This document shows, one piece after another, positions 4,262 to 30,882 of a stretch of 64,000 bases of DNA. The translations under genes were made by a program, and so were the position numbers. How positions within the stretch are numbered: position 1 is the stretch's first letter; each line of letters starts with the position of its first letter. Origin of the DNA: Tetradesmus obliquus (taxonomy: Eukaryota > Chlorophyta > Chlorophyceae > Sphaeropleales > Scenedesmaceae); the NCBI GenBank assembly GCA_030272155.1, contig CP126205.1, positions 2,716,501-2,780,500 of the forward strand, written 5' to 3'. The notes under the pieces were generated by a model. The model did no database searches. It saw nothing but the letters and a program-made list of their open reading frames with translations, and had not been told where the DNA came from.

Positions 4262-7200
4262 ATGGGCTCTTTGGGCACTAGAAGATTGAATGTGCTCTCA
4301 AAACAGCTTGCTGGCGCCTCAGAGCAGGATGCCATGCTACTGTCGCGGGAGGACACTGCAGCTGGAGCAGCAGTGCGCTCCCTCCCCAGGTGAGCTACGT
4401 ACAGTAACTATACCTCCTGGTTTGAAGATTTAAGCACCTTCCATGCGATCATGGGGCCTCCATGCCAGCGATGCTGGTGCAGCAGCAGTGCACATGCAGA
4501 CCTCTGCACACATGCCATGTGTACCATGATGGTGCTGCCATCTTTCCTGCGAGCTCATCCATCACCACCTGCACTGGCACTGCACTGGTCAATTGTTAAA
4601 TATCACAGGTTCGACCCATACATCATGGAGACGTATTTGGATGACCTGCGGGAGATGAAGCGCCAGGTGTATGACCTGTTCAAATACAACCCAGAACTGC
4701 TGACTGGACCTGAGCTGAGCAAGGGTGAGCCGCCTCATGCGCTGAGCTTGTTACGGTTACCAAGTATTTGAGCGTTCATGGCAACTGCAGGCTCAAGCAG
4801 CATGTGATAGTTGCATGGGCGCAAAGGCGCAGCTCTAGCCGCATGCTTCGCAGGTGCTGCCGGCAGGGCACGAGGTTTCTGCACCCCAGCATACAGCTCG
4901 CTGAATAAAAGAGGCAAAGAAACAACTTTGCATGCTGCTGCTGCCGCTGATGCTGGTGCTGCTGCAGAGGAGCACCGCGCCATGGTGCGCACACAGCTGC
5001 GGGCGCTGCTTAAAGAAGGCATCAACCCGCTCACCTTTTTCGACAGGGACTACAAGAAGTACTTCTACCTGGCAGGTGCGGGGAGAACGAATGCTTGCAG
5101 GAAAGGGAATGATTGAAAGCTTGCAGGAAAGAGAGACAGACGCCAGGAGGAGGGCCTCAGCACCATTTTAGTATGCATGGTGAAGACGTAATTTGGTTTG
5201 GTTGGCGGGCGTTTGTAGCTCTCCTTCATGCAACACAATGGAACTGTGTTGCTCAAGGGGGGCATCACCCGCTCACCTTATTTTGACAGGGACTACAAGA
5301 AGTACTTCTACTTCGCAGGTGCGGCGAGAACGAATGCTTGCAGAAAAGGGAATGATTGAAAGCTTGCAGGAAAGAGAGACAGACGCCAGGAGGAGGGCCT
5401 CAGCACCATTTTAGTATGCATGGTGAAGACGTAATTTGGTTCGGGTGGCGGGCGTTTGTAGCTCTCCTTCATGCAACACAATGGAACCGTGTTGCTCAAG
5501 GAGGGCATCAAACCCCTCACCTTTTCTGACAGGGACTACAAGAAATACTTCTACCTCGCAGGTGCGGCGAGAACGAATGCTTGCAGAAAAGGGAATGATT
5601 GAAAGCTTGCAGGAAAGAAAGACAGACGCCAGGAGGAGGGCCTCAGCACCATGTTAGTATGCATGGTGAAGACGTGATTTGGTTGGGGTGGCGGGCGTTT
5701 GTAGCTCTCCTTCATGCAACACAATGGAACCGTGTTGCTCAAGGAGGGCATCAAACCCCTCACCTTTTCTGACAGGGACTACAAGAAGTACTTCTACCTC
5801 GCAGGTGCGGGGAGACAGCAAGCTTGCAGGAAAGGTATCAAGAGCGGTTTCAACCATCAACGCATAGTAGTAGTTGTGCATATTTCCCAGTATCTTCCCT
5901 GCATGCAGAGTGCATGTCCATGTCTGGTGTGCAGAACAGCCTGTAGGAGGCAGTGTGCTCACCCTTGGCATCCAAGTCATCATCTTCCACTAGGATTATC
6001 AAGATATTTGTGTTCAACTGCCTATCCTTTCTGTATGCAGAGTGCCTGTCCATGGTGGACCTCAGCTTGATGGTCAAGTCTGGTGTGCAGTACAGCTTGT
6101 GGGGCGGCAGCGTGCTCAACACCTGACTCATCATACATATTGTTCACCTTTCCCCCACCTTTCCTGCAACGCAGAGTGCCTGTCCATGGTGGACCTCAGC
6201 TTGATGGTCAAGTCTGGTGTGCAGTACAGCCTGTGGGGCGGCAGCGTGCTTAACCTGGGCACAGAGCAGCACCGGCGCGCATACTATGATGACATAGGCG
6301 CCTTCAGGCTGCCGGGCTGCTTTGCGATGACGGAGTTGAAGCACGGCAGCAATGTGAGTGGTGATCTTGTGCTGTGGGCATGATGGGTTCAGCAGCAGCG
6401 GCAGACAGGGTGTTGGGCTGCTTTGCGATGACAGAGCTGAAGCACGGCAGCAACGTGAGTGGTGATCTTGTGCTGTGGGCATGATGGGTCAGCAGCAGCT
6501 GCAGATAGGGGGCCGGGCTGCTTTGCGATGACGGAGCTGAAGCATGGCAGCAATGTGAGTAGTCGGCAGTGGGTGATGCATCCTCCAGTTGGTGTTTCAT
6601 GATTGCTGCAACGGGTGGTGCGTCAGCAACAGCAGCAGCAGCTGGCGAGAGCTTGCATCAAGAATTGTGTGTGTGTGTGTGTGTGTTTTCCTTCTGGTTT
6701 AGCAACATCGCGTTGCCCGCTTGCATCGATTGCGTGTGCACATGTCCAGGATTCATCCCAAGTATGTTGCTGAGTTCAACCACGGTCACAAATTTCAATC
6801 TTTCCGTGGGTGGCTGCGCTGCAGACGGAGGCAGTGCTGGATGTGCTGACAGACGAGTGGGTGGTCAACACCTTCGATGAGGGCACCATCGTACTTGACT
6901 TTGGACTATTGTCATTTTGTTGTTTAACTGTCCTGCAGGTGGCTGCGCTGCAGACGGAGGCAGTGCTGGATGTGTCAACAGACGAGTGGGTGATTAACAC
7001 GCCTGATGAGGGCGCCATCATGCACGACATTTGAATGTTGTCATTTTGTTATTTTACTCTCCTGCAGGTGGCTGCGCTGCAGACAGAGGCAGTGCTGGAT
7101 GTGTCGACAGATGAATGGGTGATTAACACGCCTGACGAGGGTGCTATCAAGTGGTGGATCGGCAACGCAGCAGAAGACGGCAAAGCAGCAACTGTGTTTG

Positions 7201-8423
7201 CACGGCTGAAGGTGCCGTCACAAGACAGTGAGTGGCCGTACGCAGACAGCTGCAGTGCTGTGCACCCCTACCTGCATGTACGCAGCCATATCTGCTCTCA
7301 CTGTATGTGAATTGTCCAGACTGATGGAACCTTTTTTGCATGTGGCTGCAAACGAGGGTGGGCTGTGGACCATGTCGTGCATGTGCTTGAAGTGACGCTG
7401 CGCCAGCTTTGCACAGTGTGCACGTGCCCAGGTCACAAAACTCTGCATTCCTTGCTTTACTCTGTGACTGTAGGCCAAGCAGGGCTGGTGGATCATGGCG
7501 TGCATGCCTTCGTGGTGCCGCTGCGTGACGAGGCGGGCCGCTGCCTGCCTGGTGTGGAGATCCACGACTGCGGCTACAAGGTGCGCAGACAACAGGTTGC
7601 ACAGGGTTTACAAGCATGATTTAAATGGTGCGCTGCGCGACGAGGCGGGCCGCTGCCTGCCGGGATTGGAGATCCACGACTGCGGCTACAAGGTGTGCTA
7701 ACCAATTCATAATTGCAGAAGAAACATCAGCTGCCATAGTTGCCATAGTTAGGCCCCTATGTTTGCTCGTACTGTGAGTGATAGTGACAGTGGCAGCTTG
7801 TTCGACGCTCGTACTCGCACTGCGAGTTGCGCATGACATCAGGGCAGCCATGCGCCCACTACATGGCGTTTCAAAAGTATCCTGCATGATCCTCTTTGCT
7901 GCACGCTGCCATAGGTGGGCCTGAACTGCGTCGACAATGGCACCATCCGCTGCAGCCACGCTTTTTGAGGTATGCATGTCATGATGGCGGTCTGCTGGTT
8001 GGGTTGCTGCCGCAGGTGGGCCTGAATGGTGTTGACAACGGAGCCATCCGCTTCAGCCACGTGCGCGTGCCGCGCATGAACTTGCTGGACCGCTTCGCGA
8101 CTGTCGACAAGAGCGGGCGTTACAGCAGCCCACTCACCAGCGAGGTGAGTGCAGTGCGGGCTGCTCCTGCTTTTGTGGTTGTGTTTGCGACTGCGTGGAC
8201 CTGTTAGATCGCTTTGCGATAGTTACTAAGAGCGGGCGCTACAGCAGCCCACTCACCAGCGAGGTGAGGCCACCACGGCTGCTGCTGCTTGAGCAGCGCA
8301 CGAGGTGTGCGGCCATCCCTGCGGCAGCTCTGTATGCACTTAGAAAAGAAGCCCTGCGATATGGTTTAAAAAGCAACACTGTACCTTTTGCCGTCCTCCC
8401 TCCACCATCTGACCTTCTTGCTG

Positions 8424-8476
<53 letters not shown>

Positions 8477-11400
8477 TACAGAGCCGCCGCTTTGCCGCCA
8501 CGCTTGGCGAGCTGACTGGCGGCCGTGTGGGCTTGACGTGCGGCAGCGTGGGCGTGCTGAAAGGCGCAGTCACCATCGCAATCCGCTACAGCGCAGGGCG
8601 GCAGCAGTTTGGGCCACCAGACAGTGCGGAGGTGCGGTGGCTGATTCGATTGCATTTGCAACAGTGGTGTCCGTGCGGTGTGATTGGCAGCTGCTGTACA
8701 AAGTGTGCTGTGCGATGTTTGTTGTGATTTGTGCTTGGCTGTGGGTGGTGCGGCATGGTCGCTTGGGACGTGCTGTGGCAGCGTGGGCGTGCTGAAAGGC
8801 GCAGTCACGATCGCCATCCACTACAGCGCAGGGCGGCAGCAGTTTGGGCCACCAGACAGTGCAGAGGTACGGGGACGCTGCAGCATAGCTGGTGTGTAGT
8901 TTTGATGGTTTGCAGCAGTTGTGTCAAATGAGGCTGATGGGTGTGCAGATGCCACCCTACAGTGGAGAGAAGGAACGTTTGATGTGCGCGGCGTGTTTGC
9001 ATGCAGCTTGGCCAGCTGCCTGTGTGTGAGAGCTCACGCATGTCCGTTTGTGTGTGGGTGTGTATGATAGACTTGCCACGGCATCTGGCAGCAGGATTGG
9101 AGCTAGCATGGATCTAGCCACTGCTGCTGCCGCTGCCGCTCCTGATCATGCATTGTATGACTGTTGTTTTGGCTTGCCGCAGGTGTCTGTGCTGGACTAC
9201 CAGAGCACGCAGCTCAAGCTGATGCCGCTGCTGGCGACTGCCTACTGCCTGCACTTTGCCAAGGACCACCTGGTGAACCTGTACGTTGACATGAAACGCA
9301 CCAAGGACGCGCTGCTGGTTGAAGAAGTGCACAGCCTCAGGTGAGGTCGCTTACTGCTTCTTCACACTGGTGTGCTTACGTTATGTTACATGACGACTTA
9401 CGGTGAATCACCACGGTGATGTGGCTGTGCAGTCCAGTAACACGTACAGCGTGTTTCATTTTGTTACCTGGCTCTCCGGCTCTTCAACTTTGAGACGCTG
9501 CTTCACGCGCTGCTGGTTGAGGAGGCACACAGCCTCAGGTGGGAATGAATACACTCAACAATGATGATGATAACGAGTAAAACAAATGCATAGCGTTCAA
9601 CACCGCTTTCACGCAATGCAATGCAAACGCACTTGCCAGCTGCGCTGCTTACTTTGACTCCTGTCCGCTGTGCAGTCGCAGTGCCGGGCTGAAGGCCTAC
9701 ACCACCGCCTTCACGCAGGACGCGCTGTCCATCTGCCGCGAGGCCTGCGGCGGCCACGGCTATGCAGCCATCAACAGGCTGGGCTTACTTTGCCTGCCAC
9801 CTGCAACTTCCTGCCGCCACGCAGTGCCGGACTGAAGGCCTACACCACACGAAAACACGCCGCAAGCGTACTGGCTGAGTGACTCATTACTTGCACCCTG
9901 CTGCTGTACCCTGCTGCTGTGATGTACCTACAGTGCCGGGCTGAAGGCCTACACCACCGCCTTCACGCAGGACGCGCTGTCCATCTGCCGCGAGGCCTGC
10001 GGCGGCCACGGCTATGCAGCCATCAACAGGCTGGGCTTACTTTGCCTGCCACCTGCAACTTCCTGCCGCCACGCAGTGCCGGACTGAAGGCCTACACCAC
10101 ACGAAAACACGCCGCAAGCGTACTGGCTGAGTGACTCATTACTTGCACCCTGCTGCTGTACCCTGCTGCTGTGATGTACCTACAGTGCCGGGCTGAAGGC
10201 CTACACCACCGCCTTCACGCAAGATGCGCTGTCCATCTGCCGCGAGGCATGTGGCGGCCACGGCTACGCGGCGATCAACAGGCTGGGGCAGCTGCGCAGC
10301 GACCACGACATCTTCCAGACGTTCGAGGGAGACAACACCGTGCTGCTGCAGCAGGTGCGGCATCGCAGGCAGCTTGACAGGCTTGCTGGCATTGCCCTGC
10401 ACGGCTACAGGCCGCAGCGCTGAGTCAGGCCTGCAGCAACAGTTGCTGAATCTTGCGCAGTGCGTGTCGAATGCATTGCAGCGTTCCAGGTTGGTCCCAC
10501 TTGCTGCTGCTGCTGCTTGCGCTGCCATGAGTTGACAGGCGCACCGCCTCAACAGAGACTGCCCATGATTTGTGTGTTACCTTCTGTGCGCGTGTGCCGC
10601 CTGCTGCTGCTGCTGCTGTCAGGTCACGGGCACGCTGCTGAAGGGCTACCGGGCGCGCTTCAAGGGCGCACCCCTCAGCAGCACATTCAGCTACCTCAAG
10701 CAGTACGTGGCGGTGAGTGCAGCTGCATCTAAAGGGTTGAGTTTAAAAGGTTGCGTTTGTTTTTGTTGAAGGTTATGACCTTGTGTGAAGTAGACTTTAA
10801 GGGAGGACGAAAGGCTCTGAAAGACACGTTACAGTTTCATACAAGAATCATAGCTTATATACCCAAACAGCCCTCGGCTGAAGCCGGGGATTAGGCAAGG
10901 AAGCTACCATGGGAGGCTTCCCGGCACATTTGTCGGGCCGGCACATTATGCAATCCCGGATCCTTAGATCATCCCACGGGATGACATGTACCGAATCATG
11001 TCGATACACTCGCAACATAGATACAGAATACACAAGTATGTGCATAGCGATTGAGCATGCAGCTCTCTGGTGGAGAGCTGCAGGGGACAACATAATCTCC
11101 CAAGTTAGCTAAGAGATCCAGGCCAAACAGACCCTGGATTCTCAACACTCCCTCGTGGACTGGCATCTCAGCTTAGCAACCTTGGCATGCATTGCTGCTG
11201 AAGTCCGAGTTGGTGTGGACGCCATACGAGTAGTGGGCTGGTAATACACGACTGCTGATCAGACACAGGTGACAGGTACAGTGCGGACTGCATCCACGCA
11301 CTGCAAGTTATTGCAATACTGTGGAAAAAGCTGCTGCTGCAGAACAAACTCCCTCGGAGCCTGGGACACATCAGACAAGGGTCAGGCAAGCTGCATTGGT

Positions 11401-14400
11401 CATACAATCAGAAAACAAGGCAATGCGGGCAATTTGCTGAATCTATAAACTCCCTCGGAACGCAACAAGTCGGTCAGGGCCACTACATCGTATAACAGTA
11501 CACAGTGGGTGTACAGTGAACCGTGGCACAAGATGACACGCAGCTGCTGCGCAGGCGCAGGTCAGCTTTTGCGCACACACGACAAGTCTGGAACTCAAGT
11601 CTGTCTGCAGGGTGATACCGTACAGAGCGGACTGCTGTGGCAAGGTGAACAAGCACAGAGAACAAGCACACAGAACATGGGACACATGACACTTGAGAGA
11701 GCATAAACAAACTGCACAGCTGCTGCGTTGAGCCGGCAGGTGGCTGAATGATGCCTCAGGCATACATGACGGGAAGAAACAAGGCACGCAAAGCTATTGT
11801 TTTTTTTTTGCTTTATATATGTAGTCTGTAAAGGCTGGGACTTAGAGCAAATACTGTCGGCGTGTGATATGCAGTGATTGCACACCAACAACATCTACTG
11901 GTGCTCCCTCGTGGGGTGCATTCACGCATGGCCGCACGCTTGAATCAAAGGGACACGGGTCACAACTCCCTCGCTGCTGGGGTACCGTAGACCGTAATAA
12001 ATATGCTGCTGCTGTAGTACAAAGCACAAATGGTCAAACACACAAATGTCCTGAGAGCTGCGGAGCGCCTCGCTCTGCTGCGGACACCGCCGTTATCGAG
12101 TTCACCAGAGTACGGGCTTCTTGCTGCTGGCCTTGGGCGTGTTGCCTGCGTGGTGTGCGGAGACGTGGCCGGGGTCGCTGTTGATGGTGCGGCGCTGCTC
12201 TGCGCGCATGCGGCCGCGGCAGTCCTGGATCTTGTGCCCTGCCTTGTGGCAGTACAGGCACTTGAGCGGGGGCTGGCTGGCGCTGCTGTTTGCTGAGGCT
12301 GAGGGGCCGTTGTTGTAGTGCCCGTGGCCGGAGGCGCTGCTGCCGTACTGCCCGTAGCCGGAGGGGCCGCCGTTGCCGTGCTTGGCGGTGAAGTACGCCT
12401 GTGCCTGCATGGGCATGGTCTCGCTGCTGATGTTGAGGGACTCCTGCCGCATGAGCTTGGGCAGCATGGCGGTTAGAGAAGGCAGCGGCTCTGTGTCCAG
12501 GAAGATGATCTGCTGTGTGCGGAAGCAGGGCAGCAGGCCCGTGACGAAGGCCATGGCGGTGTCTGTGGCGCTGGTGGCGACGCCTGCTGCTGTCAGGTCA
12601 GCGCCCAGCACCTTGACACGGGCAGCGTAGTTGGCGACGCTCTCGCCGTGCTGCTGCTTGAGTGAGTGGAACTCCACCTTGATCTCCTGGGTGCGCGCGA
12701 CGCTGTTGGCGTGGTACATGGCCTTGAGCGTGTCGTACATCTCCTTGCCGCTGGTGCAGTCGGAGGTGAGGGCAGTGTGCTGGCTGGAGAGGGTGCTCTG
12801 GATGAGGTTCATCAGCTTGCCAGAGTTGGCATCATCGGCGCGGTCGAAGGCTGGCTCCCAGCTGGGAGTCTTGGAACGCGCCTGCAGGCGCACCACCCTT
12901 TCCCATTCAGTGAAGGGAACACCTTCAAAGCGCACGTTTGGGCCTGTGGTGAAGGTGATGCTGTCCATGTTGGATTGGCTGAGCTGCGGTTGGGGTGTTG
13001 CAGTTGGGTGCTGGGTTTGGGAACTGCGCAGCTGCATGTAGCAGGGGGCTGCAGCGCTGCAGCGGTGGCTGCAGCTGACTGTGAGCTGAGTTGGAGCTGT
13101 GGGGGACTGATGGGCCTGGTTGCCGGAAGGTAGGCTCTGTTTTGTCCACCCTAACCGTGTGCTTGGGTTCCCGGTGCGGGAGACACGGAGGGCGCCTTGT
13201 TGCAGCACCGGGAGAGTCGATGTCCGTAGCCTCCTGCGGGTGCAACGAAGGGCAGAGAGGCAGTGGTGCCTAGGCCTTAGTCGAGCTCTTTAAAGATAGA
13301 GGACTGATAAGCTGTGTTGCTCTGCCTGGTATCGATGAGGTGTCGCTGCTCAGGACAGGAGTAGTCGCTGGACGGAGAAGTAGCTACGGAACTTCTGGAA
13401 AGCAGCGGGATGTGGCTGCTTGTGCTGTAAAAGTGGATAAAGTCGAGAAAGCCGCTGGTAGAGGTGCGCAGCTTATCCACTGGGTAGCTTCGAGAGCAGC
13501 CTGATGTGACACAACAGTGCTACTGCGTGAGTGGCCTGATGCCACGAGACTGCTGACTGACGATACTTAGCGGAGAAAGAAGTCACAGTCGGAATCCAGC
13601 GATGAAGGCTGAATGGCAAAGGTCGGCCTGGGGTAGACGCGTCCGTCTTGCGAAGGGCTTGGACCTGTGCTGGAGACAGCCAGTGCTGGAACGATGCCTG
13701 TAGAGCTAGAGGCGAAAGTGTTGATGGGCTAATAGGAGTCTACTGTGTTGGAGCTGGGTGGTTGGCGCAGTGGAAGCGTGAAGATGGGCTCATAACCTGT
13801 TGAAGGTTACGGCCTTGTGTGAAGTAGACTTTAAGGGAGGACGAAGGGCTCTGAAAGACACGTTACAGTTTCATACAAGAATCATAGCTTATATACCCAA
13901 ACAGCCCTCGGCTGAAGCCGGGGATTAGGCAAGGAAGCTACCATGGGAGGCTTCCCGGCACATTTGTCGGGCCGGCACATTATGCAATCCCGGATCCTTA
14001 GATCATCCCACGGGATGACATGTACCGAATCATGTCGATACACTCGCAACATAGATACAGAATACACAAGTATGTGCATAGCGATTGAGCATGCAGCTCT
14101 CTGGTGGAGAGCTGCAGGGGACAACATAATCTCCCAAGTTAGCTAAGAGATCCAGGCCAAACAGACCCTGGATTCTCAACAGTTTTGCTGGAGATTGTGC
14201 TGCCAGGGCTTTTATACCGGACTGTGAAGTGTGCACCTGAGCTGCACCTTCAGCTACCTCAAGCAGTGTGTGGCGGTGAGTGCTTGACCTGCTGCTTCTG
14301 TTGGTTGGTGAGTTCATCAGCACTGTTTGCGCAAGGGCGACAGATACGACTAGCCAGCGCCCAGGAAGACATGGGTGCAAGATGCGCGCTTGTCTCAATA

Positions 14401-14857
14401 GTCTGCGCTTGCCTGATTATGCTTCCATCTGTGTGCATTTGTGTTCAGTTGCATGCAGGACATGCTTATGCACGACCTCAAGCTTGCCTGGAGAGCCTGC
14501 GCCTGCCTCTGTTGTTTATGTGTGTGCAAGGCGTGCTGCCGCACACCTCGCTGGTCACGCACGAAGCCGATGTTTGTGGTGTGCTGTTGTTATGTGTGTG
14601 CCAACAGCATGTGTCTGCCTGCCTGCCTGCCTGCCCGCCTGCCTGTGTTGTCACATGCTTGCAATGCGCTGCAGGGTGCGCTGCCGCGCAACCCGCTGGT
14701 GACACACGAGACCGGTGTCGCTGGATGTCTTTCATCACGCCTGCCTGCCTGCCTCTGCTGTCTTTTTTGCACATGTAGGGTGCACTGCCGCACAGCCCGC
14801 TGGTCACGCGCAAGACTGATGGTCGTGGTGTGCTGTTGTGTGTGTGCCAATAGCCTG

Positions 14858-14888
<31 letters not shown>

Positions 14889-17800
14889 GTTGTCACATGC
14901 TTGCAATGCACTCTAGGAAGCGCGGCCGCGCAACCCGCTGGTGACACACGAGACTGATGCTACTGCATATAATGCCCTAAAGCCTGCGCTTGCCTGCCTG
15001 CCGCTGCTGTCTTCTTTGCGTATGTAGGGTGCGCTGCCGCATAACCCGCTGGTGACACACGAGACCGGTGTCACTGCATGTCTTTCATCAAAAGCCTGTG
15101 CCTGCCTGCCTGCCTGCCTCTGCTGTCTTATTTGCGTATGTAGGGTGCGCTGCCGCATAACCCGCTGGTGACACACGAGACTGATGTGCGGCACCTGAGA
15201 GACCCCGCCTTCCTGCGAGGAGCGCTGCGCTACCGGGTGGTGAGGAGGCATTTCCGTTTTGGCGATATGTATGGATATGGGCTGCATCAAACAATAGCAG
15301 CAGCATTTGTGGCAGCAGCTGCAGTGCCAGCAGGAGACAGCTGGTGCGCAATGCAGGCAACGCGGTTTTGTTAAAGTCAGCAGGCCCAGAGAACCAGAAC
15401 CTGTTGCATACAAACAGCTGGACTGCACACGTCTGCACATTCTTTCTCCACAGTCTCACTCCGGCATTGGTTGCAGCCGTGTGCGTGACAGAGAGAGAGG
15501 TATGTTACGTGAATGTCGCTTCCGGCTGCGCGTCTTGCCTTTACTCGTTGCAGGCGTGGCTGCTGTTCAAGCTGCAGCTGCCTCTGCAGTGCACATGACA
15601 AGGTTTGCAGCAGCTTACATTGAGTCAGTGTGTGTTCTGCCTGCTGCATGTATCAATTGCTGTTGCAGGCACGGCTGCTGTTCACGCTGCAGCTGCGGCT
15701 GCGCAGCCAGCGCGGCAAGCTGGGTGATTTCTACGCCTGGAACGCGTGCCTCTCCCACATCCTGGCGCTGGCGCAGGTGCGCAGTTCAATTGCTTTGGTC
15801 TGTTCTGGACAGGACGGTTGTAGTTTTTTTAATCATGTCAGCAAGCTGGGCGACTTCTACGCCTGGAACGCGTGCCTGTCCCACATCCTTTGCTGGCGCA
15901 GGTGTGCAGTTTGGTTTTCTGTGCAGTTGCCCAAAACCTGCAGTCTTGTAACGGGGGTCAGTTCAGTTACTTGATCTGTCTGTCTGTGCCGACCTCTGAT
16001 CATCTGTATCGTCCGCAGCAAACGGCACTGGCGTAGATGAGCTTCAGAGGTGTGTCCAAAGTTGCCGCATGTTGTCCTCTTCGCGCAGGTGCACGTGGAG
16101 AGCGTGGCGCTCAAGTTCTTCCAGGCAGCGATGAAGGCATGCATCGACTGCAAACAAACGTTAACAACACATTGTGCCTGCAGGCGCATGTACAGAGTGG
16201 CGCTCGGTGGCTTCACACTAGCTTGGACGCATGCATCAACTCGCACATCAGAGGCATGCTCCATCTGCAAGCATATCGACCTTGCTGCGTGTTTCTTTTC
16301 AACCCGCAGGCGCACGTGGAGAGCGCTGCGCTCAACTTCTTCCAGGCAGCTGTGGAAGCGTGCGTCTATCTTGACTGCATCCGCCAACATGCATTCAACG
16401 ACAAACGGTGTTGTGTTTTGTTTCTGCAGGCGCACGTAGAGAGCGTGGCTCTCAATGCCTTCCAGGCGGCCGTGGAGGCGTGCATTGACCCCGACTGCAG
16501 GCGGGCCCTGAAGGCGCTGTGCGACCTGTTTGCGCTGCGCTGCATCGAGAAGGACACACTCTTCCGCAACGACGAGTACGTGGCACCCGCAAAGGTAAGA
16601 TCAGGAATGGTACGTGTTGGTGTGCCGCAAGAGGACTGCTTGACTTGCTGCGCTGGGCTGCATTGAGAAGGACACGCTGTTCAGGAGTGACGAGTACGTG
16701 GCCCCGGCAAAGGTAAGGCTTGTGCTCAAGCATGGCTGGTCGGCTCGCTCAACAAGCCATAGATGTGCCTGTACAGCGACGCTGCACTGCGTTGAGAAGG
16801 ACACGCTTTTCAGGACAATGTGTACGCGGCACTGGCAATGGTGAGGGCAGTTTGTCAGTTGGATTGTTGAAGATACTATTGGATTTGCAACCTGTTTGCG
16901 CCGCGCTGCATTGAAAAGGACACACTGTTCAGCAATGACGAGTACGTGGCCCCGGCCAAGGTGAGGACAATGAGGACAGTATTTTCCCGGACAAAGCAAC
17001 ATGACAGCCATGTACATAGGCCTTTGGTCTGGCATGTGGTGTGCGCTGCAGACCTTCTCGCGCCGCGCACAGCGCCTCAATGATGCACTTCCTGTGCGGG
17101 TGCATTCGCATCTGTTGCTGTGTCTCACAATACTTTCCATCTTTACCAACGCGCCAGGCCAGGGCATGCAGCGGCTGATCGTGCAGCTGTGCAGTGAGCT
17201 GCGCGGAGCTCACCGCGCCATGTTTCTGTGCCGGTTGCGCTTTCAAAGACACCTGACAGCAGCGCATAGGCATTTGATGACACTGCAGGCAGTGCCAACT
17301 TAACGGTGTTTCCTCTTCTGCTGCGTTGGCTGCTTTTTGCTGTCCAGGCCAAGGCCATCCAGCGGCTCATTGTGCAGCTGTGCAGCGAGCTGCGTGGTGT
17401 GGCGCTGCCGCTGGTGGCACCTGTTCAGGATGTTGCCTCTCATGCCTCCACCCAAATCTACTTCCACACAACCTGACACGCAAAGACATGCGATCGCACA
17501 GCATGCCGCCTAGCCATGTTTGATCGCCTGCTCTTGCCCCGCCTGCCTTCCTGCCTGTGCATCTTTTCTCTGCTTGTCACGCCATTTCCCAGGCCAAGGC
17601 CATCCAGCGGCTCATTGTGCAGCTGTGCAGCGAGCTGCGCGGAGCGCCATGCTTCTGTGCCGGTTGCGCTACGAGGGACACCTGACAGCAGCGCATAGGC
17701 ATTCAATAACACTGCAGGCAGTGCCACCCTGACGTTGTCTCCTCTCCTGCTGCATTGGCTGCTCTGCTGTCCAGGCCAAGGCCATCCAGCGGCTCATCGT

Positions 17801-18199
17801 GCAGCTGTGCAGCGAGCTGCGGGGTGTGGCACTGCCGCTGGTGGCACCAGTTCAGGATGTTGCCTCTCATGCCTCCACCCAAATCTACTTCCACACAACC
17901 TTACACGCAAAGACATGCGAATGCACAGCATGCCGCCTAGCCATGTTTGATCGCCTGTTCCTGCCCCGCCTGCCTTCCTGCCTGTGCATCTTCCCTGTGC
18001 TTGTCACACCATGTCTCAGGCCAAGGCCATCCAGCGGCTCATTGTGCAGCTGTGCAGCGAGCTGCGTGGAGTGGCGCTGCCGCTGGTGGCTGCCTGGGGC
18101 GTGCCGGACCACATCCTGCGTGCCCCGATCGGGCTGGGCGTGCACAGCGGCGTGGACATTTACAAAGAGTACCTGGCAGCAGTGGGCTTCGACGTGTGA
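4262..18199 (+). CDS. ACX2: Peroxisomal acyl-CoA oxidase (ACX2-like), 15 exons, 679 aa
   Basis: Flavoprotein that would catalyse the first, H2O2-producing step of peroxisomal beta-oxidation (acyl-CoA to trans-2-enoyl-CoA). Exons: 4262-4389, 4609-4724, 4968-5075, 6175-6353, 7068-7227, 7474-7580, 8016-8144, 8482-8631, 9183-9340, 10186-10354, 10623-10712, 15144-15236, 15669-15776, 16430-16594, 18020-18199. All junction phases agree and the total is 2040 nt (679 aa plus stop), close to the known size of plant ACX2. Family signatures in order: [72 protein letters not shown], and TFEGDNT, whose Glu aligns with the catalytic base of the family. The start is set by a PTS2 nonapeptide right after it. 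Intron 11 carries an LTR element. Most exons have tandem copies in neighbouring introns, so transcript data are needed to see which copies are used; the set given here is the one that keeps the family sequence and frame. Confidence 0.93.
4283..4309 (+). other. PTS2 peroxisomal targeting nonapeptide
   Basis: Residues 8-16 of the oxidase read RLNVLSKQL. This fits the PTS2 consensus R-[L/I/V/Q]-x5-[H/Q]-L at the expected N-terminal place. The C-terminus (GFDV) is not a PTS1, so import would depend on PTS2. Confidence 0.85.
4833..5804 (+). repeat. 243-bp tandem repeat carrying exon 3 of the oxidase (4 copies)
   Basis: The true exon 3 ends at 5075. Copies of its second half plus the downstream intron end at 5318, 5561 and 5804, an exact 243-bp period. 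The copies keep the [11 protein letters not shown] coding block and the GT donor, but their 5' sides have no acceptor in the right phase. They differ by point substitutions. Confidence 0.85.
5889..6130 (+). repeat. Two 5' echoes of oxidase exon 4
   Basis: Before the true exon 4 (6175-6353), its 5' half recurs at about 6043-6122 (near exact up to SVLN) and as a more decayed copy at about 5907-5965. Both follow a cag acceptor. Neither is followed by a usable donor in phase. Confidence 0.75.
6404..6554 (+). repeat. Two 3' echoes of oxidase exon 4
   Basis: The exon end encoding [13 protein letters not shown] is repeated at 6404-6454 and about 6510-6554, each followed by gtgagt like the true donor after 6353. 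The period is about 100 bp. Confidence 0.8.
6810..7019 (+). repeat. Two 5' echoes of oxidase exon 5 (129-bp period)
   Basis: The start of exon 5 ([11 protein letters not shown]) occurs at about 6810, at 6939 and at the true exon start 7068, an exact 129-bp spacing. The second copy keeps the cag acceptor and an open frame through NTPDEGAI, then diverges before the IKWWIGNAA core. Confidence 0.82.
7626..7692 (+). repeat. Echo of oxidase exon 6
   Basis: The 3' half of exon 6 ([11 protein letters not shown] to HDCGYK) is repeated 112 bp downstream and ends with its own gtgtgc donor-like site. Confidence 0.8.
7915..8263 (+). repeat. Echoes flanking oxidase exon 7
   Basis: The true exon 7 is 8016-8144. 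A 5' copy starts at 7915 after an ag acceptor and decays after about 50 bp. A 3' copy of its second half (LLDRFA to SPLTSE) ends at 8263 with gtgagg. Confidence 0.8.
8417..8474 (+). repeat. CTG microsatellite next to the exon 8 acceptor
   Basis: A long CTG run lies only a few bases before the tttacag acceptor of exon 8, in the place normally taken by the polypyrimidine tract. Shorter CTG runs precede exon 11 and other acceptors in the window. Confidence 0.85.
8770..8866 (+). repeat. Echo of oxidase exon 8
   Basis: The second half of exon 8 ([11 protein letters not shown] to QFGPPDSAE) is repeated 235 bp downstream with only a few substitutions. It ends in a gtacgg donor-like site but has no acceptor before it. 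Confidence 0.82.
9682..10185 (+). repeat. 252-bp tandem repeat carrying the 5' part of exon 10 (2 copies before the true exon)
   Basis: Exon 10 starts occur at 9682, 9934 and 10186, exactly 252 bp apart. Each follows a cag acceptor. The first two copies encode [16 protein letters not shown] to YAAINR nearly perfectly, then run into intron-like sequence. Only the third continues into [12 protein letters not shown] and a donor. Each unit also contains a shorter inner copy of the exon start. Confidence 0.88.
10764..11147 (-). repeat. 3' LTR of the gag-only element
   Basis: A 384-bp LTR, 3' in element orientation. It is preceded on the minus strand by a purine-rich tract (cgagggag) that serves as polypurine-tract candidate. 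Confidence 0.88.
11147..11973 (-). repeat. Five PPT-like repeats cgagggag
   Basis: The plus strand carries ctccctcg at about 11149, 11349, 11450, 11904 and 11966; on the element's sense strand this is cgagggag. The copy at the LTR border is the expected plus-strand primer site. The others could be extra primer sites or a decayed tandem array. The region between LTR and gag (11148-12101) holds no gene. Confidence 0.55.
12102..12968 (-). CDS. Copia-type Gag with CCHC zinc knuckle, 288 aa
   Basis: From the ATG at 12968 (MDSITF...) the frame runs 288 codons to a stop. The frame is open further upstream to 13208, but the upstream part looks like leader. The first two thirds resemble the gag/UBN2-type capsid of Copia elements (W-containing N-terminal block, then a helical region around [19 protein letters not shown]). 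The C-terminal part has a CCHC knuckle with spacing C-x2-C-x4-H-x4-C ([14 protein letters not shown]). The Gag would form particles and package RNA. The frame is intact, so it may still be expressed. Confidence 0.85.
   Translation of the reverse strand: MDSITFTTGPNVRFEGVPFTEWERVVRLQARSKTPSWEPAFDRADDANSGKLMNLIQSTLSSQHTALTSDCTSGKEMYDTLKAMYHANSVARTQEIKVEFHSLKQQHGESVANYAARVKVLGADLTAAGVATSATDTAMAFVTGLLPCFRTQQIIFLDTEPLPSLTAMLPKLMRQESLNISSETMPMQAQAYFTAKHGNGGPSGYGQYGSSASGHGHYNNGPSASANSSASQPPLKCLYCHKAGHKIQDCRGRMRAEQRRTINSDPGHVSAHHAGNTPKASSKKPVLW
13763..13797 (-). promoter_or_regulatory. Primer-binding site matching the 5' half of initiator tRNA-Met
   Basis: Directly next to the 5' LTR, the plus strand reads like the D-arm to anticodon part of eukaryotic tRNA-iMet (GCGCAGTGGAAGCGTG ... 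GGGCTCATAACC). The element's RNA would be complementary to it. The region 13209-13762 is untranslated leader. Confidence 0.75.
13798..14181 (-). repeat. 5' LTR of the gag-only element
   Basis: A 384-bp LTR, 5' in element orientation, differing from the other LTR at about three positions near the U5 end. Confidence 0.88.
14245..14275 (+). repeat. Echo of oxidase exon 11, beyond the LTR element
   Basis: The end of exon 11 (TFSYLKQ-VA followed by gtgagt) is repeated here. The LTR element therefore landed between an exon and its echo, and the echo is older than the insertion. Confidence 0.75.
14531..15143 (+). repeat. Five 5' echoes of oxidase exon 12 with GCCT tracts
   Basis: Copies of the exon 12 start ([12 protein letters not shown]) begin at about 14531, 14674, 14779, 14917 and 15028, before the true start at 15144. 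Most follow an ag acceptor. They are separated by runs of GCCT (for example 14612-14643 and 14862-14887). Only the last copy continues into VRHLRDPAF. Confidence 0.85.
15555..15901 (+). repeat. Echoes flanking oxidase exon 13
   Basis: A 5' copy ([11 protein letters not shown], after gttgcag) starts at about 15555. A 3' copy of [16 protein letters not shown] lies at about 15840-15901. The true exon is 15669-15776. Confidence 0.8.
16089..16429 (+). repeat. Three 5' echoes of oxidase exon 14
   Basis: Copies of the block [18 protein letters not shown] start at about 16090, 16183 and 16310, each after a cag, ahead of the true exon at 16430. The middle copy is the most decayed. Confidence 0.82.
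16650..16960 (+). repeat. Three 3' echoes of oxidase exon 14
   Basis: The exon end ([17 protein letters not shown]) recurs with ends at 16712, about 16840 and 16960, each followed by gtaagg or gtgagg. Confidence 0.82.
17158..18019 (+). repeat. Four 5' echoes of the oxidase last exon
   Basis: Copies of [17 protein letters not shown] start at about 17158, 17348, 17593 and 17775 before the true exon at 18020. Several are near identical in coding sequence and keep the ccag acceptor. Spacings alternate (190, 245, 182, 245), which suggests that a two-copy block was itself duplicated. Confidence 0.83.
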
Positions 18200-18741
18200 G
18201 CATCTCAGTGCTGCAGTGTTGTGCAGCTGCTGGCAGCAGCTGGCTGCAGCAAGCTGTGATGTACAGAGCTGGTTTGCTGATTGCTGGCGTGGTGGGCTGC
18301 ACAGCGGCGTGGACATCTAGAAAGAGTACCTGGCAGCGGTGGGCTTCAACGTGTAGCTGCAGCCTGGTGGGGCGATCAGGTCGTGCCCGCGTGGTGGCCT
18401 GCACAGTGTCGTAGACATCTACAAAAAGTACCTGGCAGCGGCAGGCTATGGCGTCTATAGGCCTGGTGGGCTGATTGGGTCGTTGCCCAAATGGTGGGCT
18501 GCACAGCAGCGTAGACATCTACAAGGAGTACCTGGCAGCGGTGGGCTTTGACGTGTAAACATTTCAATGTTACAGCGCCGTGCAGCTGCTGCCAGCAGCT
18601 GGCTGCAATAGGTTATGATGTACAGGGCTGCTGCGCTGGTTGTGCTGACTGCGGATGGGGCTGGGCGTCCACAGAGGCGTTGACTGTATCCACACGGAGT
18701 ACCTGGCAGCAGCGGGCTTTGATGTGTGAGCAACTCGGTGC
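18200..18741 (+). repeat. Four 3' echoes of the oxidase last exon
   Basis: After the stop codon, the block [20 protein letters not shown] plus stop is repeated in decaying form with ends at about 18356, 18460, 18558 and 18729. These lie where the 3' UTR should be. Confidence 0.78.
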
Positions 18742-19374
18742 TGCAGCATTGTTTGGTGTGAGGCCAGGTGTTTCGGTGGATACCTGCTGGGGAGTACCTG
18801 GCTGCGCTGGGCAATGTGGGGAGATGAGTGATTATACAACATGCTGTATTGCAGGTATGCAGCAGCCGCGTCCTGGTGAAGTGGGAAGCGCCAAGAAGCC
18901 CAGCACAGGCTGTGACTTTGGCCTTTACTTGAAGCTTGTAGTGCCTACCATGGGGTGTTAAAGATTGCGATCGCTTTGTTGGCTAGCTGTGTGCACTGGC
19001 GCTGCTGCACAGCACAGCTAGTAAGGTGGCGGCCTACGAGGTTTGACATAGCCAGGTTGTCATGTTGCAGTGAATTGTGTGAGAGCCTGACGACCATGGA
19101 ATCGTGATCTGTGTGTTCACTGTGCAACGGAATCGCTGTGTTCTTGATCTGTGCACAGATCTGTGTGGCAGCAGGGCCATGTGTCCTCTATGGTGTGTGG
19201 CTGATTGCGCACTGGACTGCGTGCATAGATGCATGTGGTGCATGGGATGATGCAGCCTCAAATCCCAACCTGCTGGTAGTGCTCAAAAGTGCAATGATGT
19301 CGGCAAGATTCGAAATGCGACCGTTGAAAACAACGTTCATAGTGTGCAAGTTTGAGGATTGGTGCATGGAAAAC
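18742..19374. other. Intergenic region, no supported gene
   Basis: I see no exon-like coding sequence, repeat or RNA gene between the oxidase echoes and the tRNA. Confidence 0.4.
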
Positions 19375-19447
19375 GGGGTCGTAGCTCAGATGGTAGAGCG
19401 CTCGCTTAGCATGCGAGAGGTAGGGGGATCGATACCCTCCGACTCCA
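19375..19447 (+). tRNA. tRNA-Ala (anticodon AGC)
   Basis: A 73-nt cloverleaf: acceptor GGGGTCG pairs with CGACTCC and contains the G3-U70 wobble pair that marks tRNA-Ala. The D arm is GCTC/GAGC, the anticodon arm CTCGC/GCGAG around TTAGCAT (anticodon AGC), and the T arm GGGGG/CCCTC with loop ATCGATA. The discriminator is A. No intron. CCA is not encoded, as usual in nuclear genes. Confidence 0.95.
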
Positions 19448-23323: not shown

Positions 23324-26300
23324 TCATCGCAGACCAATGCCAGCACAGCAGAACACGTGCTTGGCTTCAGGCACTGCCTTTGTCAGCATGTCTGCCAGCA
23401 TCTTGTCAGTGCTGATAAAGCTGATCTTGATGCGTCCACTTGCTGCTTGCTCACGCACAAAGTGATAGTGCACATCAATGTGCTTGGAGCGCATTGATGT
23501 GATGGGGTTCCTGATGAGCTTAAGTGCTCCCTGGTTGTCGCCATACATCTGAACACGTGAGGTGCCAAAGCCGGTCTCAAACATCACCTTGTCAAACCAG
23601 ATAGCATCACGCGCTGCATGTGAGGCTGCTACATACTCTGATTCACAGGTTGACAGTGTGACACACTTCTGCAGCCTGCTGGACCAGATGACTGCTCCGC
23701 TTGCTGCTGTGAACACTGAGCCGCTAGTGCTGCGCCGTGTGTCTGTATCATCACCGTAGGAGGCGTCACAGAAACCACGCGGCTGCAGGCCGCCCAGCTT
23801 GCCATTGAAGACCAGGCCCATTGAGGTGGTGCCATTGAGGTAGGCCAGCACAGACATAGCTGCTTGCCAGTGCTGCTTTGTGGGGCACGACAGGTAGCGG
23901 CACAGCAGGCTGGATGCGAAGGCGATGTCAGGGCGTGTGCATGTAGCCAGGTAGTTGAGGGCGCCTACCACACTGCCGTAGTGGTACACAGATGTGTCGA
24001 GTGGCTCGCCTTCGCCTGCTGCCAGCTTGATGCCTGTGGGCAGTGGCGTGGAGCGGGGCTTGCTGTCGGACATGCCGTACTTGGCGATGAGCTCCTTGGT
24101 GTACTGCTCCTGCTGCAGGTGTATTGTTGCTGCTGCTGGGTCCCTTGTGACGGTCATGCCCAGGAAATAGGAAGTCTCGTCCATCAAAGGTACTGAGCAG
24201 CTGGGTCTTGGTCTCCTCCACGTGGGCGGTGCCGCCATATATGATGTCATCCACCCAGACCAGAGCCAGCAGGATGCCGCCTGAGTCGTTGCGGACATAG
24301 AGGCCTGGATCTGCTGAGGTGGGCTGCAGGTGCATGTCGTGCAGCGCTGCCTTGAGCTTTGTGTGCCATGCGCGTGGTGCCTGCTTGAGGCCATAGAGCG
24401 CCTTCTTGAGCTGCAGCACGTAGCCAGCAGGGCCTTTTACAAAACCAGGTGGCTGCCGCACATACACTTCTTCCTCCAGCTCACCATTTAGAAAAGCAGT
24501 AGTGATATCTATATGGTGTAGGGCAAAGCCGTATTGGGCAGCCAACGCCAGCAGGATGCGGAATGTGCTGTGCTGGCTGACGGGCGCGTACACCTCTGTG
24601 TAGTCAATGCCCTCACGCTGCTGGAAGCCCTTCACCACAAGGCGTGCTTTGTAACGCTCAATTTTGCCGTCTGCATGCCGCTTGATCTTGAAGACCCATT
24701 TTACATCAAGAGCTTTGTGGCCTGCAGGGAGCTGCATCAGAACCCAGGTGGCGTGCTGCTGCAGGGAATGGAGCTCTCTGTGAATGGCATGGCGCCACTC
24801 CCGGGCTTGGGGGCCTGACAGGGCTTCTCCAATTGTTTTGGGTTCCACGATGGCGTCATCGTCTGCGTGCTGCGCATAATCTGATGCCGGGTAGCGCGTG
24901 GAGGGCTTGCGCGCACGGCCGGAGGGGCTGGCTGACAGCGGAGGCGGAGGAGATGTGTTGCTGCTGGGCGGACTGGCAGGTGGGTCTAGGGCTGGCCAGG
25001 GGCTGGTAGTACGGGCAGGCGATGTAGATGACGACCTGTCAATGGCTCCAGCTGGTTGATGGCTCCTACCGGCTCCAGCTGGTTGATTGCTCCCACTGGC
25101 TCCAGCTGGTGATGGGCTGTCAGTGGAGGCAGCTGGTGGCGTGTTGCCAGGCTCTGCAGTAGCGAGCGTGGGGCTCCAGCTGACAGATTTGGTTGGCTTG
25201 GCAGTGGGATTCTGCTGCAGTGTAGGGATGGTAGGGGCTGGCAGGCACTCATCAAAGTACACATCCCTGCTGATGACAATGTCACCAGTGTCATTTGACA
25301 GGATGCGGTAGCCTTTAGGTGCGTAGCCCACCAGGGTGCCCAGAGTTGCCTTCGGATCCAGCTTCTTGCGCTTTGAGGGCGGGGTGACACTGTAGACTTT
25401 GCTGCCAAACACACGCAGATGGCTGATGTCGGGCTTCTGGTTGAAGAAGGCCTCATAGGGGGTGCAGGTCAGGCCTGCCGCTGGAGCCAGTAGGTACAGT
25501 TCGTTTGCTGTGTTGACTGCTTCAGCCCATAAATTCTTAGGCAGGGAGGCCTCTATGAGCATGGCGCGGGCTTTCTCCATCAGAGTCTTGTTGAAGCGTT
25601 CAGCCATCCCGTTCTGTTGTGGGTTGTACGTGACCGTGGGCTCGTGCCTGATGCCATTCTTCTTGAGGTAGGCCAGCACGGTATTGCTCATGTATTCAGG
25701 TCCGTTGTCGGAGCGCACAGCCTTGACCTTGTGGTTGGTTTGCCGCTCCATGAATGCCAGCGTGTAGGGCAGGACAGTCTTGATGTCGCCCTTGGACTCC
25801 ATGGGCACAGCAATGGAGTACTTTGTGAACTCATCGATGAAAGTAGCCAGCCAGAGCTTGCCGCCCAGCGATATCTCTTCCATAGGGCCCATGACGTCTG
25901 TGTGTACCCGTGCCAGGGGCTGGGTGGCCTTGGCTGATGAGCTGTGGCTGTGGTAGGGCAGCTTTGAGCCCTTGGCCTGCGGACACACATCACAGAACGC
26001 CTTGGAGGCAGCTTGGATCTGGCTGGTGGTGATGTGCATGCCCTTCACCATGTGCAGCTGCTTGGCGAGGCTGCTGTAGCTGAGGTGAGCCTGCCTGTGG
26101 TGCCACAGCTGTGGGGTCTCTGCTGACTTTGCCAGCATTGCAGCTGCCTGGGGGACAGCTGAGTGGCCAAAAATATAAATGTTGTTGATCTCAGGTGTAC
26201 TGGCAATGAGGTCGGTGTTGTGGAAGAAGTTGCAGTTGCCACCTGCAAACACAAAACTCATGCCAGGTAGCTTGGAGGCCTTGCCAATGCTCAGCAGGTT

Positions 26301-27263
26301 TGCTGTGGCTTCTGGGACGTAGTACACATCATGCAGCACGATGTCTCGGGTGCCAGAGGTGGGGTGCGCAATCTGTACAGTGCAGTCGCCTATTGCTGTT
26401 GCGTAGCCCTTAGTGTTGTTGGCAAAGGTGAAGCACACGTCCTGGTTAGGTGGTCGTAAATTGGTTAGGTGCGCCAGGATGTGGGTGAGGTGTTTGCTGC
26501 AGCCGGAGTCCATGATCCAGGCAGTGTCGTCGCCATCATCCGTAGCGGCTGTAGCAACATACTCCATGTCACATCCTAATGTTGTTGCTGCTGTGCTGCT
26601 GCTGTTGCTGCAGGTGCATGGGCACAGGTCAGCAATGGGCAGGTCAATTACTTGGCTTGTAGCTGCATAGCGGGCGTGGCGGGCTGATGGCAGGTCAGCG
26701 CCAGGCGCATCTGCGGAGTGGATGCCGGAGAACAGGTCAGCAGCGGTGCCATCAGGATTGCCAGGCTCCAGGTCAGCATCAAACTGTCCCGCAGTGAAGC
26801 AGCTGTCCTTGATGTCGTCCAGGGCTTTATTGTACTTGTTCAGCTGGCGCTGGCGGCGTCGTTGGACCAGGCGAGATATACAGGAGACAGGTTGCGCATT
26901 GCTGGGCGCGCTGGAGCAGCAGTTGGGCTTGGCATCGGTGCTGCTGATGGCACTTAGAGCCAGCGTTGAGTAGTTTGGGGCTGCTGAGTATTTGGGGGCT
27001 GATGTGTTGGCCCGCCTGTCATCGGCACGCTGCTTCTTGCGGCATTCTTCTATTGCATGGCCTGTCTTCTTGCAGTACTTGCAGATAGGCGATCTGCCGC
27101 TGCCGTTGTCACTGTTGTCGTGGGGTTCAGTGTAGTTGCTGCTCTTGGTGTGGCGGTGGTCCTGGTAGTCTTGCTGGTGGTTCTGCTGGTGGTCGAAGGT
27201 GGCGCAGGAGTTGCGGGAGGGAGCAGCGCCGTAGTTGGGACGAGCGTGGTCATGGCTGGGGCT
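23324..27263 (-). pseudogene. Copia Pol: zinc knuckle, protease, integrase, RT, RNase H (frameshifted)
   Basis: This is the pol part of a single gag-pol frame, entered from the nested insertion at 27263. Order: CCHC knuckle (CKYCKKTGHAIEEC), aspartic protease (WIMDSGCSKH), integrase with HHCC region (HHRQAHLS ... CDVC), D-D-E core (HTDVMG, RSDNGPEY, NGMAERFNKT), reverse transcriptase (ARLVVKGF, DITTAFLNG, WVDDI) and RNase H (FCDASYGD, TLSTCESEY), with the stop at 23324. The integrase-before-RT order is diagnostic of Ty1/copia. A one-base indel near 24180-24195, just after the RT active site, shifts the last third into another frame. Without the nested insert the whole gag-pol spans 4690 nt, one base over 1563 codons, consistent with a one-base net insertion. 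Confidence 0.93.
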
Positions 27264-30756: not shown

Positions 30757-30850
30757 CTTGAAAACGCCTTGCTGTAATGGGAGGACAGCTGGGAAGGCGA
30801 GAGAGATGGTCACTGCGAGCTTCAAGGATAAGCGCAGTACATTTGCTGAG

Positions 30851-30882
30851 TGACGCAGTGGAATCGTGACAGGCTCATAACC
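30851..30882 (-). promoter_or_regulatory. Primer-binding site (tRNA-iMet 5' half) of the Copia element
   Basis: The plus strand reads GACGCAGTGGAATCGTG then ACAGGCTCATAACC, abutting the 5' LTR. It is less perfect than the copy at 22843-22875. The leader 30757-30850 has no other feature. Confidence 0.72.

What the first reader, a model, noticed from the sequence alone, without database searches (positions are those of the whole stretch)
4833..18741. Exon echoes: almost every exon of the acyl-CoA oxidase has tandem copies in its flanking introns
At least eleven of fifteen exons have between one and eight partial copies next to them. Each locus has its own period: 243 bp (exon 3), about 100 (exon 4), 129 (exon 5), 112 (exon 6), 235 (exon 8), 252 (exon 10), about 120 (exons 12 and 14), 180-245 (exon 15). 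Copies often keep one splice site and the reading frame while the far side is lost. The substitution load differs from nearly none to heavy, so duplication is continuing and is not one event. Introns away from exons do not show this. It suggests a duplication process guided by transcripts, splice-site CTG/CAG repeats or selection on exons. I know of no described system that does this to nearly all exons of one gene.
Basis: partly seen in the sequence, partly recalled or inferred. Interest (0 to 1): 0.9.

Follow-up and report, generated by a model that had tools for sequence, protein, structure and literature searches.

The report
Exon-end echoes in green-alga introns
In this green alga many exons have shortened copies of their own ends lying about 120 bases away in the neighbouring intron, apparently left behind by DNA repair at exon-intron borders, a pattern that would confuse gene annotation and might preserve fossils of old alleles.

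Summary
The acyl-CoA oxidase gene (15 exons, 680 aa) has partial copies beside 13 of 15 exons; all 15 repeat clusters counted in it include a true exon (9.2 expected, p=0.005). In 294 kb of the genome, identified here as Tetradesmus (Scenedesmus) obliquus, 70 of 138 confident exons have an echo. Exon 3' ends are copied downstream (70:2) and 5' ends upstream (66:2), as tandem duplication across a border gives. Offset, 124 +/- 19 bp, is the tightly held quantity. In spaced pairs homology ends a median 12 bp past the border. Differences are mostly synonymous (13:1 in the closest echoes), too many for echoes decaying freely from birth. Best reading: recurrent repair-born junction duplications, mostly non-functional, possibly templated by a diverged allele. 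Tandem duplications of this size are a known plant mutation class, and one potato case crosses an intron-exon border; density, exon tie and synonymous-first divergence are new. Caveats: most exons are ab initio predictions; repeat coverage per base is similar in exons and elsewhere in 15 sampled loci; held-out test marginal (8 of 17 clusters, p=0.05); no RNA or second haplotype.

The parts
4262..4389 (+). ACOX exon 1 (no echo)
4609..4724 (+). ACOX exon 2 (no echo)
4968..5075 (+). ACOX exon 3
5250..5804 (+). three downstream echoes of exon 3 3' end (5250-5318, 5493-5561, 5736-5804), 243-bp array
6175..6353 (+). ACOX exon 4
5905..5970 (+). old degenerate upstream echo of exon 4 5' end
6037..6120 (+). 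close upstream echo of exon 4 5' end, 97.6%, offset 134
6406..6554 (+). two downstream echoes of exon 4 3' end (6406-6453, 6512-6554), period 101
7068..7227 (+). ACOX exon 5
6810..7020 (+). two upstream echoes of exon 5 5' end (6810-6891, 6939-7020), period 129
7474..7580 (+). ACOX exon 6
7626..7698 (+). downstream echo of exon 6 3' end, 91.9%, offset 113
7360..7402 (+). weak upstream echo of exon 6 5' part
8016..8144 (+). ACOX exon 7
7905..7960 (+). upstream echo of exon 7 5' end, offset 101
8193..8290 (+). downstream echo of exon 7 3' end, offset 119
8482..8631 (+). ACOX exon 8
8767..8872 (+). downstream echo of exon 8 3' end, 92.5%, offset 232
9183..9340 (+). ACOX exon 9
9505..9541 (+). downstream echo of exon 9 3' end, offset 198
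10186..10354 (+). ACOX exon 10
9682..10035 (+). two full upstream echoes of exon 10 5' end (9682-9783, 9934-10035); 27-bp remnants at 9822 and 10074; period 252
10623..10712 (+). ACOX exon 11
14236..14283 (+). downstream echo of exon 11 3' end, separated from it by the later LTR element
10764..14181 (.). gag-only copia-type LTR element in intron 11; LTRs 381 of 384 identical; not part of the echo process, relative date marker
15144..15239 (+). ACOX exon 12
14530..15071 (+). five upstream echoes of exon 12 5' end (14530, 14675, 14779, 14916, 15028), alternating units
15669..15776 (+). ACOX exon 13
15547..15587 (+). upstream echo of exon 13 5' end, offset 115
15841..15911 (+). downstream echo of exon 13 3' end, 90%, offset 126
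16430..16594 (+). ACOX exon 14
16085..16379 (+). three upstream echoes of exon 14 5' end (16085, 16172, 16306)
16649..16965 (+). three downstream echoes of exon 14 3' end (16649, 16780, 16886), offsets 118/247/366
18020..18199 (+). ACOX exon 15 with stop codon
17155..17845 (+). four upstream echoes of exon 15 5' end (17155, 17341, 17589, 17768)
18293..18752 (+). four downstream echoes of exon 15 3' end, past the stop codon (18293, 18396, 18495, 18654)

Best explanation
Echoes are by-products of a recurrent DNA-level event at exon-intron borders, seen in most parts of this genome sampled. During repair of a break or paired nicks near a border, about 124 bp is duplicated, so a shortened exon end plus splice signal is left 100-150 bp into the intron. 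The exon copy still joined to the rest of the exon stays functional; the other becomes an echo. Later rounds add echoes or amplify units into arrays, and echoes then decay. Shown: geometry, offset, exon tie by cluster, junction-limited homology in spaced pairs, mostly synonymous differences. Inferred: repair as the cause. Most tentative step: the two copies often come from two diverged homologous sequences (alleles or hybrid parents), strand invasion anchoring in the conserved exon and end-joining in the unmatched intron. The differences would then be synonymous at birth and the intron flanks unrelated from the start.
For: Geometry: 3'-end echoes 70 downstream, 2 upstream; 5'-end echoes 66 upstream, 2 downstream; 17 internal, 4 whole. 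Held-out loci: 9 of 9 3'-end echoes downstream, 5 internal, no 5'-end ones. Offset 123.8 +/- 19.2 bp (62 first-order echoes); exon part and spacer anticorrelate (rho -0.54), and the offset spread is smaller than in all 2000 permutations. Exon tie: 83 of 113 clusters outside this gene touch a predicted exon vs 41.6 expected; in full-unit repeats, ACOX included, 41 of 52 vs 22.8 (sums). Homology ends a median 12 bp past the border in 104 border crossings of spaced pairs, 9 bp in 21 in ACOX. Flanks 40 bp past the border: only 21 of 51 spaced pairs beat the 95th percentile of unrelated flanks. Differences: 13 synonymous to 1 nonsynonymous at >=96.5% exon identity, falling to 132:120 below 86%, against 41.5% synonymous expected for a neutral echo. 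Three spacers searched are found nowhere else in the assembly, in a search that skips simple repeats and very common words. One strain of the species assembled at 208 Mb against 109 Mb for another (PMC5552973, whole text); that this means two diverged haplotypes is my reading.
Against: The allele step has no direct support: no second haplotype was available. In full-unit repeats introns stay alignable at similar synonymous divergence (pS 0.190, intron 0.156), so allelic introns should not be unrelated. The fall of the synonymous share with divergence may partly be saturation of synonymous sites. The missing intron part is not universal among close pairs: one search looked at partial pairs only, and 7 full-unit clusters (all with more than two copies) are as close, >=95.5%. 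Exon tie at birth is weakest where it matters most: full-unit repeats at >=93%, 4 of 6 outside ACOX vs 2.2 (p=0.12). Best coding score within the cluster span gave no enrichment: mean percentile 0.508 in 113 clusters. Repeat coverage per base is 11.6% in exons and 10.8% elsewhere in the 1-Mb loci. In the D1 protease gene one cluster touches the 6 known exons. 5 of the 20 loci have no such repeat. Held-out loci: 8 of 17 clusters touch exons vs 5.2, p=0.05.
Confidence: 0.38

Rival explanations
1. Plain tandem duplications of 100-150 bp arise at random on one chromosome by nick or break fill-in, as in rice. The exon tie is ascertainment: exon-containing pairs stay recognisable longer because one copy is under selection.
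For: Size and geometry fit. In rice tandem duplications are the commonest source of insertions, enriched at 50-200 bp, with their share falling beyond 125 bp (PMC7971508, passages and section 7). Repeats without predicted exons have the same offset range (65 pairs). Synonymous and intron divergence are similar in full-unit pairs (0.190 and 0.156). Repeat coverage per base is about even. Seven full-unit clusters are as close as the closest partial pairs.
Against: Twice the lifetime gives probability 3e-6 for 15 of 15 clusters in ACOX; about tenfold is needed to reach 0.03. A neutral echo predicts 41.5% synonymous differences; observed 61% of 303 in ACOX and 57.8% of 366 elsewhere, and 13 of 14 in the closest echoes.
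Confidence: 0.3
2. Echoes are maintained by selection, as functional splice-site copies or because gene conversion from a mutated echo would damage the exon, so echoes with nonsynonymous changes are purged.
For: pN/pS 0.24 in ACOX over 39 echoes, 0.28 (95% 0.23-0.35) in 59 other echoes against 1.62 and 2.15 in the wrong frames. AG kept in 64 of 68 5'-end echoes.
Against: Donor GT lost in 16 of 65 3'-end echoes. Offsets show no frame preference (56/51/54). An echo in the exon 3 array carries single-base gaps. Echo-echo pairs within ACOX have pN/pS 0.51. No translated use is apparent.
Confidence: 0.15
3. Assembly artefact: two haplotypes of a heterozygous strain merged so that both versions of an exon end appear side by side.
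For: Synonymous-only differences in the closest partial echoes, unrelated flanks, offsets near short-read length, spacers unique in the assembly.
Against: A continuum of identity from 97.6% to about 76% in ACOX, lower elsewhere, with gaps and a stop, arrays of 3-5 copies with higher-order units, an echo split from its exon by an LTR element with 0.8% LTR divergence, and no N in the window or in 20 loci, which suggests long-read assembly.
Confidence: 0.07
4. Mobile introner-like elements insert at exon borders and make long target-site duplications.
For: The closest partial events look like copy - insert - copy.
Against: Of 13 spacers compared with the held DNA the longest listed match elsewhere is 18 bp (hit lists capped), and three genome searches found the spacer only at its own place.
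Confidence: 0.03

Closest known systems
Short tandem duplications from patch-mediated repair of adjacent nicks (rice; Arabidopsis recalled); Pol alpha-primase/CST fill-in at breaks in mammalian cells
   Same: DNA-level, head-to-tail, size around 100 bp; rice share declines beyond 125 bp (PMC7971508 section 7; PMC8355091 abstract)
   Different: In what I read the class is not described as tied to exon borders; here half of the confident exons carry one, often with the intron part missing, and copies differ mostly synonymously
[quoted passage not shown]
   Same: A tandem duplication crossing an intron-exon boundary, splice signals inherited from the parent
   Different: One event that made a new intron; here recurrent across the sampled genome, and the ACOX model needs no new intron
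Tandem exon duplication / mutually exclusive exons (recalled; PMC5740500 seen only in a listing)
   Same: Exon sequence repeated beside the exon
   Different: Whole exons with both splice sites; here 4 of 161 hits are whole
Introners (PMC9860276, listing only)
   Same: Insert flanked by repeats inside genes
   Different: A repeat family is required; the spacers tested are unique
Minisatellites (recalled)
   Same: Arrays at exons 3, 5, 10, 12, 15
   Different: Each locus has its own sequence, anchored on its exon, with few copies

Membership tests
Short tandem duplications from DNA repair | Copies head to tail with unit about 10-200 bp | tested here: met
   offset 124 +/- 19 bp, direction law 136:4
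Short tandem duplications from DNA repair | Whole unit duplicated, alignment length equal to offset at birth | tested here: inconclusive
   at >=95.5% identity 9 single exon-end copies lack the intron part (partial pairs only), while 7 full-unit clusters, all of more than two copies, have it
Short tandem duplications from DNA repair | Copies identical at birth, later differences without regard to coding | tested here: not met
   13:1 synonymous in the 14 closest echoes; continued constraint could also cause this
[quoted passage not shown]
   ACOX aligns to homologues with the 15 exons alone, so none is needed in this gene; no RNA data
Introners | Many similar copies of the insert in the genome | tested here: not met
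Tandem (mutually exclusive) exons | Duplicate exon has both splice sites | tested here: not met
   4 of 161 hits whole
Tandem (mutually exclusive) exons | Copies spliced alternatively into mRNA | not testable with these tools
   no RNA data
Assembly artefact | Absent from single long reads | not testable with these tools
   no reads available

The most novel reading that the evidence does not exclude
Echoes are fossil alleles. In a species with strongly diverged haplotypes, break repair at exon borders copies the exon end and first intron bases of the homologous chromosome and joins them by end-joining upstream of the old exon end, so each echo keeps the discarded allele with its own intron flank. 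A large share of exons would then carry a readable record of past alleles, and the process would continually rewrite intron ends.
Probability: 0.25. Interest if true: 0.85.

Novelty: new variant of a known kind. Interest (0 to 1): 0.6.

Why it matters
If it holds genome-wide, one alga has a mutation process that repeatedly lengthens introns at exon borders, a testable route for intron growth and for new splice sites. Gene predictors may call echoes as exons: a simple model trained here on ACOX alone did so in ACOX, so annotations of this biofuel species may be systematically wrong. The synonymous-first divergence makes a clear prediction, that echoes match other haplotypes, which resequencing can settle.

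Tried and rejected
First gene model had exon 10 one base off and broke the frame; corrected. A 60-aa phmmer query found nothing. Self-training of the gene finder drifted to implausible gene models and was dropped for a model trained on two known genes only, ACOX and the D1 protease. The best-coding-score percentile test showed no exon enrichment (0.508). I kept the exon-prediction test, because a random span in gene-dense DNA often holds some coding peak, but the two disagree. RNA-guided copying was considered and set aside (intron bases kept, geometry, stop-codon end echoed). Introners were tested and rejected (one search was a poorly chosen query, in effect a unique-sequence control). Exon-limited gene conversion from exon to echo was considered: by my reckoning it predicts no more than about 41.5% synonymous differences and so does not explain the excess alone. 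G/C direction of differences is symmetric (37:43 and 190:175). The identity column is ungapped and was not used. Rows dropped: clusters over 1500 bp, alignments over 400-700 bp (by call), pairs under 75%, 85% or 68% identity, exons scoring below 8, 9 or 12 (by call), pairs spanning the LTR element; one echo per exon side.
Full report
What was given. Exons of its D1 protease translate to a protein identical at 189 of 189 residues to PDB 1fc7 over the C-terminal part and at 352 of 354 over a longer stretch, apart from one residue at a splice border that I had left out. That structure is from Scenedesmus obliquus (recalled), so I take the organism to be Tetradesmus (Scenedesmus) obliquus.

The gene. 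I rebuilt the acyl-CoA oxidase by hand: 15 exons, 680 aa. Pfam and a match over residues 72-676 to an ACOX structure confirm it. No close paralogue was found among the scored candidates; other hits are 36-52% identical, so the echoes do not come from a second copy of the gene in this assembly.

The echoes. Exons 3 to 15 all have partial copies. In ACOX copies of exon 3' ends lie downstream (15) and copies of 5' ends upstream (16), with 2 internal. Some are full tandem arrays (exons 3, 4-3', 5, 10, 12, 15). Others share only the exon part and a few intron bases (for instance exons 4-5', 6, 8, 9, 13, 14), at 86-98% identity, and the intron parts differ between echoes too. All 15 clusters counted in the gene include a true exon (9.2 expected, p=0.005). 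An LTR element with LTRs 381 of 384 identical lies between exon 11 and its echo, so that echo is older than the insertion.

Not one gene. Self-comparison of 20 further 10-kb loci found repeats of this kind in 15 (one of them, L023, only long arrays) and none in 5. In 264 kb, 208 pairs have offsets that pile up at 100-160 and 220-260 bp. A gene finder trained on ACOX and the D1 protease recovered 14 of 15 ACOX exons, which were in its training data. Clusters touching a predicted exon: 43 of 43 in homology-chosen loci (21.7 expected; one of these loci holds the training gene D1 protease), 25 of 48 in the 15 loci at the 1-Mb marks (12.5), 15 of 22 in the rest of the C15 stretch (7.5), together 83 of 113 (41.6 +/- 4.5). 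The coding score ranks homology-defined exons outside the training genes at a mean percentile of 0.92 in 15 stretches. In three random held-out loci the figure was 8 of 17 vs 5.2, p=0.05. Two results run the other way: the best coding score inside the span shows no enrichment (0.508), and repeat coverage per base is even, 11.6% of predicted exon bases against 10.8% of others in the 1-Mb loci (18.6% and 12.5% over all outside ACOX). Clusters without a predicted exon (29) also show period-3 mismatches (z=2.9) after masking trinucleotide runs, so some exons were probably missed.

Geometry. From 138 confident exons (ACOX and D1 protease included), 161 echo hits fall on 70 exons: 3' end down 70, up 2; 5' end up 66, down 2; internal 17; whole 4. 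Offset 123.8 +/- 19.2 bp is the same for both types (123.6 and 124.1) and is the tightly held quantity: exon part 57.7 +/- 17.1, spacer 66.2 +/- 23.7, rho -0.54 (62 first-order echoes). This is what a duplicated unit of about 124 bp laid across the border gives.

Where homology stops. In spaced pairs it ends a median 12 bp past the border (104 crossings outside ACOX, 66 of them within 19 bp) and 9 bp in ACOX (21 crossings); arrays run far into the intron. Beyond the border 21 of 51 spaced pairs have flanks more alike than 95% of unrelated flanks, and the rest do not; 9 of 9 arrays do. Among 14 partial pairs of at least 95.5% identity, 9 are single exon-end copies separated by 40-177 bp of unrelated DNA, the other 5 being arrays or echo-echo pairs. 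In 7 of the 9, where an exon edge was modelled, the copy takes 0-9 bp of intron; in the other two I judged this by eye. That list held partial pairs only; 7 full-unit clusters are equally close, all with more than two copies. The last exon's echoes stop between 11 bp before and 49 bp after the stop codon, so a splice site is not needed.

Nature of the differences. Exon versus echo in ACOX: pS 0.29, pN 0.070 over 39 echoes. Elsewhere: pS 0.202, pN 0.057 over 59 echoes, ratio 0.28 (0.23-0.35), against 1.62 and 2.15 in wrong frames. With the mutation spectrum of non-exonic array pairs, a freely decaying echo beside a perfectly conserved exon should show 41.5% synonymous differences. By exon identity the counts are 13:1 (14 echoes, 3 of them without any difference), 62:26 (24), 50:30 (17), 77.3:47.7 (16), 132:120 (23) synonymous to nonsynonymous. 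So neutral echoes from birth are rejected under that expectation. Either both copies were coding before the event (diverged alleles) or echoes stay constrained; saturation of synonymous sites makes the trend alone inconclusive. Echo-echo comparison inside ACOX gives pN/pS 0.51.

How much bias is needed. For random 124-bp units in this gene, 2509 viable positions cross an exon edge by 20 bp and 6695 are intron-only; 15 of 15 clusters touching exons has probability 3e-9, 3e-6 with twofold longer detectability, 0.03 with tenfold. Full-unit repeats, whose detection depends less on the exon, are also tied to exons: 41 of 52 vs 22.8 with ACOX (sums), but the closest class outside ACOX is small (4 of 6 vs 2.2, p=0.12).

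Mechanism. Repair-born tandem duplication is the base: in rice such events are the commonest insertions, enriched at 50-200 bp, and their share declines past 125 bp (PMC7971508, passages and section 7), and a biochemical route at breaks is known (PMC8355091, abstract). A potato gene shows one such duplication across an intron-exon border (PMC4974935, abstract). What that base does not give is the synonymous-first difference and the missing intron part in many close pairs. An allelic template would give both. It is my favoured but unproven addition: the species has assemblies of 109 and 208 Mb (PMC5552973, whole text), but introns in full-unit repeats remain alignable at similar divergence, which speaks against unrelated allelic introns.

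Odds.

Novelty. My ten literature searches listed no paper that by title or abstract start describes exon-end echoes across a genome; several lists were capped (for instance 20 of 799, 12 of 2166), and only open-licence PubMed Central was searched. I rate it a new variant of a known kind.

Noticed in passing
10764-14181: Non-autonomous copia-type LTR element with a gag-only reading frame (12102-13289, minus), LTRs 381 of 384 identical, inside intron 11.
   Followed up: partly
23928-30906: Copia retrotransposon on the minus strand: reverse transcriptase, integrase and gag domains in two reading frames.
   Followed up: no
32006-34189: Satellite-like array, 278-bp unit, 7.8 copies, 87% matches.
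   Followed up: no
19375-19447: tRNA-Ala (AGC) just downstream of the ACOX gene.
   Followed up: no
40604-42306: RCC1-repeat protein; its 150-bp DNA repeats look like protein repeats, not echoes.
   Followed up: partly
43796-45301: FAD-dependent oxidoreductase reading frame (PF12831).
   Followed up: no
L025: A peptidase S41 gene whose best match reads across three TGA, probably an intron; its reading frames show repeated peptide stretches.
   Followed up: no
L007 6877-7367: 63-bp minisatellite, 99.8% identical copies, overlapping predicted coding sequence.
   Followed up: no
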